From NCBI GenBank assembly GCA_000310025.1, contig FN649751.1, forward strand, positions 1,265,525-1,329,524: a DNA stretch of 64,000 nucleotides, in the 5' to 3' direction. The position numbers and the translations under genes are program-made. This stretch comes from Ectocarpus siliculosus (taxonomy: Eukaryota; Sar; Phaeophyceae; Ectocarpales; Ectocarpaceae). This document shows positions 38,611 through 47,600 of this stretch, one piece after another. How positions within the stretch are numbered: position 1 is the first letter of the stretch; each line of letters begins with the position of its first letter. The notes beneath the pieces were generated by a model. It did not search any database. It was not told the origin of the DNA and saw only the letters and a list, made by a program, of their open reading frames with translations.

Positions 38611-41600
38611 TCACTGCGAAGGAACCTGGAACCTACTCTCTGTACCAGGTGCGGCGAAAGAGCGCTGAGATCTGCGTCCCCTCTTGTTTCTCAACGGGTG
38701 TTGTAGCTCTCGCTCTAGCGACAACCTTCGAGCCAAAACGTCGGCACACCAACGCACCTTCTTGCGCTTGGGGATGGTAAAAGCGGAAGTGGGAGACCCT
38801 GGAGCGGATGATCCGGTGGAAGTCACGTCGCCGCTGAAGCTAGCCTTACGCTTGCCGCCGCTGCTGCTGCCTCCCCCCTTTCCGGAATCCTGATCTTCGA
38901 CCCAACCCGTCTGTTCGGGTCCCAATCAATCACCAGTGGCGGTTGCGAGGAAGACCTTCGGTCTTGTGCATGCGCTAGTTTGATCTCGTGACAGCACAGT
39001 GGTTTGTGAACACAATGAAACACCGTTTGTCCGACTGCCCGGCTATACTATCTCATTTCCTACCAAACAAGTACATCCTTGGTTGGTCGCACCTTCTCTG
39101 CTTTCTGGAAATATTCCTCCTGTGCGTCGCGGCTCAGCTCTCGCCACATCATCTTCACGCACAACGACAAAAACGAACAACGACGGTAGGGAGGAAGAAT
39201 CAGGGGGGGGTGGGGGGCGTACTGCCGTAAGCGTACAACCGTTACACGTTGTAAGGGGCCAAAAACTAGCGAAAGAGGGACAACAAACAACCCCCTCAAT
39301 CAAACCACATTCGAAAACGAACAGTGCTTGCGCAGAAGTGGTAGAAATGCGTTTCTAAAAAAACTGAAGCGCAACACGCCGGGCGGCGGGTTATTTCCCC
39401 GTCCGTCAATCAGACCGGGTTGCCATAAAAACACTACTTCGAAGTAGTATAATATAGCACCAAAGCATTCCGCCAGAAACCAACCAATCATATGCATACG
39501 CATACCTTGATCTTATCCTTGATCTCGTCCGAGCTGGGGTCCGACACGCCCCTGTCTCGCAACGCCTGCACAGCCGTTTCGCGCTCCGCGTGCTTGAACA
39601 GGTAAAACGCTGCCTCATCATCGATCACAGCGAGAACAAACCCACAAACAATTGACAAACAACCACGCGCACGGAAAACCATTCAGCGTTTCGGCAAATT
39701 GCATGTTTGACCAACCAGCCTGGGTCACACAGCCGGGAGTACCATGCACATTGCTGCCGAGACGAGACGCGCCAGGTTTATTACCCCCGGCTGGAGACAG
39801 TGAAAGCACGAAGGGAAAAGAGCTGGGGGTGGGTGGGGGGAGTAAATCATTCGGTGCACGCCTTGTTCATTTTACCGCGCTGGTTAGGCATCCCTCTACA
39901 TCTGTCGGGGTCTCTGCGCTCCTTCCTAATAGATAGACAAGACGCAGCCAACATCTGGGCGTTCGTTCACTGTGTTTTGCGTCACGTTTCAGGCCGCGAC
40001 ACTACAGACCACCATATCGCCTAAAATAGACTACTATACCCTTTGCTCACCACAACAATAAAAAACGGGACTTCAAAAAATATTTATGATCTTCGCGCTC
40101 AAGATGCACACTTCACCTCTATCTAAGCACACCGCCACCGCATCAATCAACACCGCTCATTGGCGAGCGTTCAGACACCGACCACCCGCCAACCCACCGG
40201 CGCGTGATATAGGTCCCCCCCCCCCCCCCAAACTCCACTCCGAGAGAAGCACTCACGGGATCGTACTGTAACCGTTGGCCGTTCCCCGTCCCCGTGCGGC
40301 CTCCGCTTCTTTGAAGACGTCGAACTCCCCACCTTGCTGCTTGAGTCGGCTTCTTTGCCGCTTGCCTCGCTCTTGGTTGGCTGCTGCGGTAGGCACCGCG
40401 CGCATCGGCGTGCGTACAAAAAAAAAAAACATGCACACAAGATCTAACTTGGCACGTACACGGTGACACAAGATCCCGGCTCCCAGACAGGCGAAGCATG
40501 CATCACCACCACCACGGCGGACAAACAATTTGTGAGACGTTCTCAACTGCTACGCTACATTAGGCAAGCTCTAAAAGACTTAACGATCATTTACAGAGAT
40601 GGTCAAGATTTACAAGTACAGACAAGGAAGATTGTTGGAGTTAAGACTATTCGAAGCAAGATAAGACTGTTCGAAAGCAGAGACCAAGAAGGTTGGGGTT
40701 CCTCCGCCTAGGTAGGCATCGCCGCAGCCAAAGGGTGCATGTTGCGGGCCAAAGGGTGCATGGTTCTCGGGCGCATCGCTCCAATGGCTCCAATGGCCCT
40801 CCATTGGTCACCTGGATCCCAACAACCACTAGTTTGAGGCTGACTTCTCACGTGGCCACGAACAATATTTGGTTACTTCGGCGTGGCCATCATGAAGTGG
40901 CGGGGGGGGCGAGTTGCTGCGATTCTCTTGAGAAGAGAAGCTGGTATCCACCCCTTTTTTCGTACTGCGGCGGAACATCTTTGACGTTGCTGGCTGTAGA
41001 ACACCGATAGCACCCTCTTGGTGGATAAATCAATCTTGACAAGTCGATTGATCGCACACCTGCGCTTTCGCCCACACTTTCACGGTCAAGTAGAAGAATA
41101 CCGAGTAGTTTGGGCTTGGACTAATTCGTTTGGTGTCGCTGTCGTTTGAAAATCGATTAGATCGCACACCTGCGCTTTTCGCCCGCACTTTCGGGGCGAG
41201 TTAAGAGATACCGAGCAGTTCGTGCCTAAGCTCGTTTGGCGTCGCTGTCGTTCAAAAACTCGATCGATCGCACACTTCCCCACATTTCGCGCGAAAATTC
41301 AATAGAATACCGAGTTGGTTGGGCTTACACTGTTCGTTTGGTGTCGCTGTCGGAATGTACAACTCGGCATCACCTTCGCGTTGGTGTCCTTGTCGTCCTT
41401 CTTCTCTGCATCCGTCAGCCCTTCCTCGAGAAGGCTCTCGAAGCCCTCTCGGATGTACCACGAGTCTCTCACGTCACCCGCCCTCTTCTCTTTGTACGCT
41501 ACCTCCTGCGCAAGCACAAGAAGAAGAAACAGCGGCAACACCAGCACGGGAGGGAGGGGCACGAGTGATGTGTTGCCAGAGAGCGACAAAGGGCCGAGCA

Positions 41601-44600: not shown

Positions 44601-47600
44601 CCCGCCCCGGTCTTTTCCTTGCCACCGCCGCCGGTAGCCGAGTCCGCGCCCCCCGCGGGGCCGGAGCCGGCGCTGGCGCCCCCATCGGCAAGGAGGGATT
44701 CACGTAGCCGAGACTTGTCCAAGTGCAGCTCTGTCAGCTGTGTGGCGAAGTCAGGACAACGCGCAGCACACGGGGCGATATCGCAGACATTGTCAGCCCA
44801 GGTTTTATGTAGCACGGAGGTGTGCAGGCACAGTGGGGGGGGGGGGGGATTAAGTCAAACGATAGCAAAAGGAGAACAAGAATAAATTAAAAGGAGAAAA
44901 AAATACATCAATATCCCAAGAACAATCATAGGCAAACAGCACTCGATAGACGCCCCAGCTCTCTCTCAGTGCGTGTTGCATGCATGTACTCTTGACGCAC
45001 ACCTTTCCCGTCTCCTTTTCGACCTTGCCCTGGAAGTCCTTGTAGCTGTTGTGCCTTTCCCTCTCCGCGACCCTTCGCCTCTCCTCCTCCCCCAGACGCT
45101 CAGACCCGCCGGGACCGGCCCCCCGCTCCGTCCCCTGCCTGCTCGTGCGTCGCGTTTTTTTCTTTGTCATCATGTTTTTGTTTTCGTGACATTTGGCGTC
45201 CCCAAAACTGAATACAAAGAAAGATCTAACTAACAAATACAAATACAAATACAAATACAAAAACGCAACATCGTATTCCATCTACCAAATTTCTCTCGCG
45301 CGTCTTTAACTTTCAACAGGAGCAGCCGAGCAGAATCCAGAGAGCAGAGCAGAGCAGAGCAAAGAGGTGGTTCACGAAGCACCTGCCTGTTCCCCACCGC
45401 CTTCTCTCTGCCTCTGTCTGCCTGTGTCTCTCTCTCATCTTCTCGTCGTACATAGCTCCCATTATCCCCCTCCCTGTCTCTCTTCTCCTGTCCTATGCTA
45501 CCCTATGCTGTTATGTCATGTCACGTCATGTCCTGTCCTGTCATACCTCTTGTGCCATTCGGCATCCTCCTTCTCCGCAGCCTTCATGAGGGCCTCGCAA
45601 CGCTTGCCCAGCGCGTCTGCCGAGCAGCTCCTCAGGAAATAGTCAAAACGGAACCTGCCACAAAAAAAAAGAAATGAATACAATCCGGGGGGCGAGTTAG
45701 CCGAGCAACGGCGAGCTCGGATCTGGCCAAAACAGAAAAAAAAAGAAACTCAAATAAAAAGGGAAGGCAAGCGCATCTTAAATAATTCGAAACGAGATCT
45801 GGGCAACATCAACATGCATCGAAACGGCATGGAAACGGAAAGAGAGACTCATGAGACGATTTTGCTGGCGCACGAGCCAGTGTTGCATGTACAGTCACAG
45901 CTAACCGGTGAATCACCAGCAGCAGAAGCAACACCAACACCAACAGCAACATCGAAAACAACCACAACAACAGTAAGCACAAGAACCGAAATACCGCCCC
46001 CTCGGCATTGACGGCAAAAAAAACAACGGCGTCAAAATCGAAGGCAAAGTACCGCAGGAGGGTAGAGTAGAGAGGGGCTCTTTTGTGTGACCACGAGTAG
46101 GAGTAAACGGCACTAGTGCTGTGAGCGCTGGTTTGAAGTGAAGACAAAAAAAAAAAAAAAACACGACACGACACGACACGACACGACACGACACGACACG
46201 ACACGACACGAATCGAGCCACCACCACCGTACCTGTCGCTCCGTCTGATGGCCGCCTTGACAAGGTCCCAGTTGCCGTACCCGTACTTGTGGGCCAGGCA
46301 CAACAGGTACCTTACACGAGACAAGAAAGGAAAAAAACAACCACAACGACACACGGAGGGAAGAAGAAGAGAAACGAATAAGCCACGGAAAACAGGCAAC
46401 ACCGAAAAGACAAGGAGGCTGCCGAGGTAAAAGTTTTGCGGGCAACACGTCGCACAGCATGGGGTCGCTGGTAAAAGAAAAGAGTCCAAGGGCGAAAAAA
46501 CGACCAAGATCAAATCTCGAGCAACCAAACCCGCCGAGGCGAGCAGGAGAGGGCACAAAGCAGCGCCAACAAATAGCACAGAGCAAGCGACGACGTCCAC
46601 ATCGCGTGTGGAGCAGCAGAAGCAGCAGCAGCAAGAGTATCCCTTGCGACGAAACGGCACGACCACAACATTAGACACTACTGCAACGACAGAAATCACG
46701 ACGACAGGCACACCTCCGAGGAAAACACACGCCGACAAAAAAGGAAAGGAAATTGTCGCAAACCAGCGGCGCAAGCACTATCGTATGATACATAGCTGAG
46801 CAGAAAGGGGATCGACGCAAGCGCTACCATAAATACCATACAGTTCCCCGTTGGTCTCTCTTCACGGCAATAGCATAGTACATTTTATGTTTAGGCCCAT
46901 TTCTCTCCATTCTTCAAGCGCCATATTTCCAGCGGGCCGCTCACAGGCCAAAATTCCTACTTTTCGGGCGCTCACAGGCCACCATGCCCAAATGTCGAGT
47001 GCTCACAAGGGCGCCATTTCTCCTATCATTTTCACCTAGATTTAGAGTGGGTTCTTCCCCGCGTTCCTATTCCGTTCCGCAGTACACACCACGTCTGTCT
47101 GTCTCTCTGTCTGTCTGTCTGTCTCACGGGAATCTTTCAGATCGACTGGATGCTTTCCGCTCCTTTTCGGCTTTCTTTCACATCACACAAGGTCTGTCGC
47201 TCTGACGCTTCGCTCTCTGTCTGTCTGTCTGGAGCTCACGTAAAATCTCTCCTGCACACGCACCAGTTTTCCACTCCTTTGCGACTATTCCGACCACACG
47301 AGGTTTGCCACTCTGTCGCTTCGCTCTCTGCCTGTCTGTCTAGTTCTCACACAAAGTCTCCCCTCCATTAATTTACGGGATTTGTCCGTTTTTCCGATTC
47401 GCCTGCGTTTCTCCGATTCATCCACTACCTACCAGCACCGCTGCAACATTCGTTCATGTCCTCCCGCAACATATTCAACGCCTCTTCTCCTGCTTCGAAG
47501 CGCAAGTCTGGTGCGGACTTTCTGCGTGGTGAGGTCATAGGCCACTGTGTTCGCCCTGAGTGCGACTCCGCTCAAGCCTCTCACTCGTATCCCGTAAGAG

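What the first reader, a model, noticed from the sequence alone, without database searches (positions are those of the whole stretch)
38611..45138. ISWI remodeller continues past SLIDE into a winged-helix-like region and an HMG box
Sequence: after the SLIDE exon (45547-45654), eight further exons join without any phase conflict (phases 2, 0, 0, 0, 0, 1, 0, 0) down to a stop at 38611. They encode a Glu/Arg-rich helix, a segment with [17 protein letters not shown] resembling a winged helix, and a box from [10 protein letters not shown] to EEYFQKAEK that matches HMG-box spacing. Family knowledge: animal, plant and fungal ISWI proteins normally end soon after SLIDE, and HMG or other DNA-binding subunits are separate proteins. 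Inference: a fused DNA-binding module gives one-protein linker binding. A neighbouring separate gene is the main alternative.
Basis: partly seen in the sequence, partly recalled or inferred. Interest (0 to 1): 0.75.

Follow-up and report, generated by a model that had tools for sequence, protein, structure and literature searches.

The report
Chromatin motor with extra DNA-gripping domains
A gene for a nucleosome-sliding motor (ISWI) appears to carry extra DNA-binding domains at both ends, one resembling part of a different chromatin-building machine, and a second gene in the same genome has the same layout.

Summary
Eight exons (45138-38611, minus strand) continue the ISWI gene past SLIDE with the stated phases; in 7 of 8 the predicted frame has the best codon score of six. 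The decisive evidence lies outside the window: the one other locus that rings for SLIDE in this genome (C17) continues past SLIDE in the same order, winged helix then HMG-like box. Paralogue matches are reached by 11 (winged helix) and 12 (C-terminal box) of 5000 shuffles. The winged helix resembles that of CAF-1's large subunit: Cac1_C is the top Pfam hit of the isolated domain in both copies, below cut-off, though not when whole tails are scanned; a two-copy profile finds two Cac1 structures. Caveats: no transcripts; weak C-terminal HMG box; codons after 38758 look non-coding; one in-frame TAG in the motor. 'One protein replaces subunits' is not supported: domains of ISWI partners ring elsewhere. 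New variant of ISWI; function inferred.

The parts
45547..45654 (-). SLIDE-ending exon of the ISWI gene; donor AAGAG|gtatga, phase 2
   Evidence: SLIDE 121.5 bits in the joined protein; SLIDE match of this exon alone 29.7 bits in the genome scan
   Evidence: codon score best in the predicted frame; C17 has a charged exon in the same place, but the two do not align above shuffles
44540..44737 (-). exon with [11 protein letters not shown] and a Gly-rich linker
   Evidence: codon score best; C17 reads LDNPNVRSLLES in the same order
42509..42658 (-). winged helix, helical part ([12 protein letters not shown]...[23 protein letters not shown]); GC donor
   Evidence: Cac1_C 13.3 bits, below cut-off 24.3; paralogue match reached by 11 of 5000 shuffles
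41374..41505 (-). winged helix, end of last helix and wing ([26 protein letters not shown])
40257..40380 (-). Lys/Ser-rich linker exon before the C-terminal HMG box
   Evidence: phase-compatible; predicted frame is not the best-scoring one
39506..39609 (-). C-terminal HMG-like box, first part ([21 protein letters not shown]...)
   Evidence: HMG_box E 1.7e-4, 22.4 bits against cut-off 25.4; codon score best
39093..39152 (-). C-terminal HMG-like box, last part ([20 protein letters not shown])
   Evidence: listed 20th of 22 in the genome scan with HMG_box, 15.8 bits, E 3.4, below cut-off
38611..38910 (-). last exon; coding supported to about 38758, the rest doubtful; stop at 38611
   Evidence: 38757-38611 scores as non-coding
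45547..61991 (-). ISWI motor, SANT-like and SLIDE exons of the same gene
   Evidence: SNF2-rel_dom 323.6 bits, Helicase_C 89.7, SLIDE 121.5
60474..60562 (-). motor exon with one in-frame TAG beside a run of 8 G
   Evidence: the genome search returned only this place and the C17 paralogue at 76% identity
62874..63053 (-). exon between the AutoN-like segment and the motor, with basic patch SPGKRRREA and acidic run
   Evidence: alignment with C17; codon score best

Best explanation
This is one gene for an ISWI-family nucleosome remodeller with added DNA-binding domains at both ends: N-terminal HMG box, AutoN-like segment, SNF2 motor, SANT-SLIDE, a winged helix like that of the CAF-1 large subunit (Cac1/p150), and a second, divergent HMG-like box. 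Two paralogous genes in the genome share this layout. Likely working (inferred): the motor slides nucleosomes as in other ISWI enzymes, while the HMG boxes and the winged helix, which in HMGB proteins and Cac1 bind DNA with little or no sequence preference, hold linker or entry/exit DNA. They would add to linker-length sensing by SANT-SLIDE and raise affinity for free or newly made DNA. The paralogue's CAF-1-like PCNA motif suggests that at least that copy may work behind replication forks. Shown: exon chain, codon signature, shared order in two loci, N-terminal HMG box by profile. Weakly shown: nature of winged helix and C-terminal box. Inferred: DNA binding, linker sensing, link to replication.
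For: Open phased exon chain. Codon signature. SLIDE gave 5 exon matches in 2 loci and both loci continue into the same module. Joined proteins 47% identical over C26 residues 4-1199. N-terminal HMG over cut-off in both: C26 HMG_box_2 46.0 bits, C17 HMG_box 39.8. Winged helix: Cac1_C top hit of the isolated domain, E 0.093 (C26) and 0.013 (C17); two-copy profile finds 5ejo (E 0.019) and 5jbm (E 0.047), 'Chromatin assembly factor 1 subunit p90'. C-terminal box of C26: HMG_box E 1.7e-4. A profile of all four boxes finds HMGB1 at 1.5e-7; the N-terminal boxes may carry it. Best solved relative of C17: chain 8v4y_W, a SMARCA-family protein of 1052 aa taken to be SNF2h/SMARCA5, E 7.9e-234. Outside the gene no match to the tail better than E 0.46 or, for the C17 winged helix, 7.4. 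Passages seen: Cac1 winged helix binds DNA sequence-independently (PMC8874411); the Nhp10 HMG box contributes to the INO80 ruler (PMC8163753).
Against: No transcript evidence. Cac1_C is below cut-off in both copies and is not listed when the whole tails are scanned (C26, C17; other weak DUF hits cover the region there). The top row of the profile search is an HIV gp120 chain scored on two 7.6-bit repeats. The C26 and C17 winged helices searched singly find no Cac1 structure, and C17 does not match the presumed own CAF-1 fragment (4512 of 5000 shuffles as good). C-terminal HMG box below cut-off in C26 and without any hit in C17; C17's box does not match its own N-terminal box (545 of 5000). Post-SLIDE helices do not align above shuffles (3076 of 5000). 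Segments for shuffle tests were chosen after seeing them. HAND not found by Pfam. [quoted passage not shown] One in-frame TAG in the C26 motor.
Confidence: 0.65

Rival explanations
1. Two adjacent genes: ISWI ends just after 45547 (read-through stop near 45516) and an independent DNA-binding protein starts near 45.17 kb.
For: An ATG-ATG lies in frame upstream of the 45138 exon, and the ISWI exon can run on to a stop. No transcripts were available.
Against: The second ISWI locus has the same module in the same order; two separate genes would have had to stay adjacent in both copies while the ISWI parts diverged to 47% identity. In C17 the alignment with the solved ISWI runs on to residue 1111, into the exon after the SLIDE exon, which starts at residue 1099. 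The intron in question is 408 nt, below the median of 583 for this gene model.
Confidence: 0.06
2. The fusion is real, but the C26 copy is a decaying paralogue with a stop in its motor, so only the C17 copy makes a working enzyme.
For: In-frame TAG in exon 60562-60474; the genome search returned no other copy except the C17 paralogue.
Against: No other stop in the 1504-codon model, though exons were chosen to be open; the codon signature is kept into the tail. The TAG abuts a run of 8 G, where a base-call error is plausible, and an acceptor directly after it would also keep the frame at the cost of a few conserved residues.
Confidence: 0.2
3. The tail is real, but the C-terminal box is not a true HMG box, only a helical segment with similar spacing.
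For: Below cut-off in C26 and no Pfam hit in C17; the C17 box does not match its own N-terminal box (545 of 5000 shuffles).
Against: E 1.7e-4 in C26; the two C-terminal boxes match each other (12 of 5000) and the C26 one matches its N-terminal box (43 of 5000); the HMG_box genome scan lists its last exon, though only at 15.8 bits, E 3.4.
Confidence: 0.2
4. The winged-helix-like domain is real but unrelated to CAF-1; the Cac1 resemblance is what any small winged helix would give.
For: All Cac1 hits are below cut-off; whole-tail scans do not list Cac1_C.
Against: Cac1_C is the top hit of the isolated domain in two diverged copies, Cac1 structures are rows 2 and 3 of 10 in the profile search, and the C26 helix matches the presumed own CAF-1 fragment (42 of 5000 shuffles).
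Confidence: 0.3

Closest known systems
ISWI remodellers: SNF2h/SMARCA5 and yeast ISW1
   Same: SNF2 motor, AutoN-like segment, SANT-like and SLIDE domains; chain 8v4y_W E 7.9e-234 over residues 169-1111 of the C17 protein, ISW1 chains E 5.6e-187. The name SNF2h is recalled; the molecule name is cut in the output
   Different: In one search only 26 residues of the 1052-aa chain follow the match; that animal, fungal and plant ISWI lack HMG boxes and a winged helix after SLIDE is recalled, not tested. HAND is not detected in the present genes
CAF-1 large subunit (Cac1/p150) winged helix: Pfam Cac1_C, PDB 5ejo and 5jbm
   Same: Weak winged-helix similarity; in the C17 paralogue also KSPITNFF, the K-x-x-I-T-x-F-F pattern of human p150 KAEITRFF
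   Different: No CAF1A dimerisation domain found in either tail; that domain rings once elsewhere, at C11
HMG-box subunit Nhp10 of INO80
   Same: An HMG box working with a remodeller motor (passages of PMC8163753)
   Different: There the box is in a separate subunit; here it is in the motor protein
HMGB proteins
   Same: N-terminal boxes over cut-off; four-box profile matches HMGB1 at 1.5e-7
   Different: Not a free HMG protein; fused to a remodeller

Membership tests
ISWI remodeller | SNF2 ATPase with Helicase_C | tested here: met
   323.6 and 89.7 bits in C26, 320.6 and 92.2 in C17
ISWI remodeller | SLIDE domain after a SANT-like domain | tested here: met
   SLIDE 121.5 (C26) and 86.1 bits (C17); SANT region aligned with the solved ISWI
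ISWI remodeller | HAND domain (PF09110) | tested here: inconclusive
   Not among families at E up to 1 in either protein nor in the genome scan (where nothing rang in the controls either); the alignment with the solved ISWI runs through the region
ISWI remodeller | AutoN-like segment before the motor | tested here: met
   KYILRQSDIFA (C17) aligned with EYLLKQTELFA of the solved ISWI; QFLLKQSDIFQHF in C26. The name AutoN is recalled
ISWI remodeller | ATP-dependent nucleosome sliding and spacing | not testable with these tools
   needs biochemistry
HMG box, N-terminal | Pfam score over cut-off | tested here: met
   C26 HMG_box_2 46.0 bits (cut-off 22.4); C17 HMG_box 39.8 (cut-off 25.4)
HMG box, C-terminal | Pfam score over cut-off | tested here: not met
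   C26 22.4 bits against 25.4; C17 no hit. Called HMG-like only
CAF-1 large-subunit winged helix (Cac1_C) | Pfam score over cut-off | tested here: not met
   13.3 bits (C26) and 16.0 bits (C17) against 24.3; not listed for whole tails. Called Cac1-like only
CAF-1 large-subunit winged helix (Cac1_C) | Profile similarity to solved Cac1 winged helices | tested here: inconclusive
   5ejo E 0.019 and 5jbm E 0.047, rows 2 and 3 of 10
CAF-1 large subunit | CAF1A dimerisation domain (PF12253) | tested here: not met
   Not among the 4 families listed for the 401-aa C26 tail or the 2 listed for the 465-aa C17 tail, E up to 10; the one genome match is at C11

The most novel reading that the evidence does not exclude
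A lineage built a replication-linked ISWI by taking on CAF-1-like parts (a Cac1-type winged helix, and in one paralogue a p150-like PCNA motif) together with two HMG boxes, so that one polypeptide would bind fresh DNA behind the fork and space the nucleosomes that CAF-1 has just deposited.
Probability: 0.2. Interest if true: 0.75.

Novelty: new variant of a known kind. Interest (0 to 1): 0.57.

Why it matters
How ISWI enzymes measure linker DNA, and how nucleosome deposition is coupled to spacing, are open questions. A natural ISWI that carries HMG boxes and a CAF-1-like winged helix in the motor protein is a built-in experiment: domain deletions could show directly whether such modules set spacing or guide the enzyme to new DNA.

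Tried and rejected
Single-sequence PDB searches with the C26 winged helix and the C26 C-terminal box gave one meaningless row each; the C17 winged helix alone found no Cac1. Whole-genome scans with Cac1_C and HAND gave no match, and nothing rang in their controls either, so they show no absence. NCBIfam on two C26 pieces gave nothing useful. Scans of viral contigs and genome contigs confirmed no relatives of the 190-aa C26 tail; both are unlikely places for a eukaryotic gene. Rfam at gathering threshold found nothing in the window.

Rejected: a neighbouring separate gene (C17 has the same order); a GT donor at 42451 (insert scores as non-coding and loses the Cac1_C hit, though the paralogue match survives, 23 of 5000 shuffles); a CAF-1 large-subunit gene next door (no CAF1A dimerisation domain in the tails); an HMG-protein gene next door (no close relative of the tail elsewhere).

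Literature: 9 searches; seven looked for such an ISWI (12, 13, 14, 31, 32, 60, 61), 51 and 52 for mechanism. Listings were capped: 0 of 0, 20 of 44, 20 of 70, 15 of 1802, 15 of 63, 15 of 113 and 3 of 3 papers for those seven. No listed title or abstract start described an ISWI with HMG boxes or a CAF-1 winged helix. Beyond listings I saw only find-passages of PMC8874411, PMC9570017, PMC8163753, PMC4751559, PMC10538959 and PMC5404918. No paper was read whole, and most subscription papers are not held, so this is no proof of absence from print.
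Full report
The window lies in an unnamed eukaryotic genome of 189.5 Mb (G000:C26:1265525-1329524).

Observation. I tested coding nature with a codon log-odds score trained on 1660 codons of the motor-to-SLIDE exons of two ISWI genes against their introns. In 7 of 8 tail exons the predicted frame scores highest of six. The exception is the Lys/Ser-rich linker exon 40380-40257. 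For the last exon only the first half looks coding: 38757-38611 scores -0.57 bits per codon, so the true C-terminus may differ from the stop at 38611. In the paralogue C17 the predicted frame is also the best of six in 8 of 8 tail exons, some by a narrow margin.

A GC-AG intron. The winged-helix exon can end at a GT donor (42451) or at CAG|GCGAGT (42508). The GC choice removes 19 residues that score as non-coding. With the GC donor Cac1_C is listed, with the GT donor no family is (proteins 2 and 3); the match to the presumed own CAF-1 fragment also needs it (42 against 1700 of 5000 shuffles). The paralogue match does not depend on it (11 against 23 of 5000). My model uses GC donors also at 61360, 58469, 55966 and 54251, in the conserved motor part, two with the same GCGAGT hexamer: 5 of 34 introns here and 0 of 28 in the paralogue.

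The paralogue speaks for one gene. A genome scan with SLIDE gave 5 exon matches in two loci, this gene and C17:421980-422789 (the tool scores only the best candidates). Reading C17 and splicing it gives a 1563-aa protein, exons having been chosen to be open, 47% identical to C26 over C26 residues 4-1199. After SLIDE it continues through charged helices, LDNPNVRSLLES (C26: [11 protein letters not shown]), a Gly-rich linker, a winged-helix-like domain and an HMG-like box, and stops right after it. Local alignment scores of the two winged helices and of the two C-terminal boxes are reached by 11 and 12 of 5000 shuffles, segments chosen after seeing them. The charged helices do not align above shuffles (3076 of 5000). 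In C17 the alignment with the solved ISWI runs to residue 1111, into the exon after the SLIDE exon, which starts at residue 1099.

What the winged helix is. Cac1_C is the best Pfam hit of the isolated domain in both paralogues, E 0.093 and 0.013, below the curated cut-off; in C17 DUF6819 follows closely at 0.016. When whole tails are scanned Cac1_C is not listed (C26; C17). A profile of the two finds two structures of the CAF-1 subunit p90, 5ejo (E 0.019) and 5jbm (0.047), as rows 2 and 3 of 10; row 1 is an HIV gp120 chain scored on two 7.6-bit repeats. Neither winged helix alone finds a Cac1 structure. A CAF1A dimerisation domain rings once in the genome, at C11 (61.8 bits). About 3.5 kb further on, behind a long gap, a frame reads QVHQKVKDVATRER, presumably the winged helix of that CAF-1 gene; it matches [14 protein letters not shown] of C26 (42 of 5000 shuffles) but not C17 (4512 of 5000). 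I therefore call the domain Cac1-like, not a proven member.

HMG boxes. The C-terminal box of C26 gets HMG_box E 1.7e-4, 22.4 bits against 25.4; that of C17 gets no Pfam hit. A genome scan with HMG_box gave 22 matches, 13 over cut-off. Among them are the last exon of the C26 C-terminal box (15.8 bits, E 3.4) and, unexpectedly, a box upstream of the motor in both ISWI genes: C17:434429-434626 (44.3 bits, over cut-off) and C26:1333002-1333151 (21.0 bits, below; beyond the window). In the joined proteins the N-terminal boxes pass cut-off (C26 HMG_box_2 46.0, HMG_box 26.4; C17 HMG_box 39.8, HMG_box_2 34.9) and match each other (0 of 5000 shuffles). In C17 the box starts the protein, and the next exon carries the AutoN-like segment and the start of the motor. 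All 6 C26 exons and both C17 exons before the motor score best in the predicted frame.

PCNA motif. The C17 tail holds KSPITNFF, the only match in that protein to [KQ]xx[ILVM]xx[FYW][FYW], with 0.16 expected per shuffled protein; C26 has none. Human p150 has KAEITRFF, a non-canonical PCNA motif (passage of PMC9570017). This is a lead, not a demonstration.

How it may work. [quoted passage not shown] the HMG box of Nhp10 contributes to the spacing ruler of INO80, a minor part (PMC8163753). By analogy the added domains would hold linker or free DNA on both sides of the motor and modify linker-length sensing and recruitment. The genome has DDT matches (2, one over cut-off) and WSD matches (3, all over cut-off), so ISWI partner subunits probably exist and the fusion need not replace them.

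Weak points. No transcripts. The C26 motor has one in-frame TAG in exon 60562-60474 beside a run of 8 G, an assembly error or decay; the genome search returned only this place and the C17 paralogue. HAND is not detected. No eukaryotic collection was available, so the spread of this layout is unknown. None of the titles and abstract starts listed by seven literature searches on this question described it.

Noticed in passing
60474-60562 (minus): One in-frame TAG within a conserved motor exon, next to a run of 8 G; the C17 paralogue has no stop there.
   Followed up: partly
donors after 61360, 58469, 55966, 54251, 42509: GC-AG introns are frequent in my model of this gene (5 of 34) and absent from that of its paralogue (0 of 28).
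   Followed up: partly
L015 (C17:413001-423000), minus strand, about C17:417700: CAF-1-like PCNA motif KSPITNFF between winged helix and HMG-like box of the paralogue.
   Followed up: partly
43700-44310 and 63440-63880: The same repeat reads as [30 protein letters not shown] at both places, next to homopolymer runs and, at the first, an N gap inside an intron.
   Followed up: no
47474-47933: Inverted repeat inside an intron: arms 47474-47655 and 47752-47933, 182 nt, 97% complementary, like a foldback element.
   Followed up: partly
48668-48896: Tandem array of a 23-base unit, 9.7 copies, inside an intron of the gene.
   Followed up: no
L017 (C17:433001-443000): Reading frames upstream of the C17 ISWI gene look like an acyl-CoA dehydrogenase (recalled family look, not searched).
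   Followed up: no
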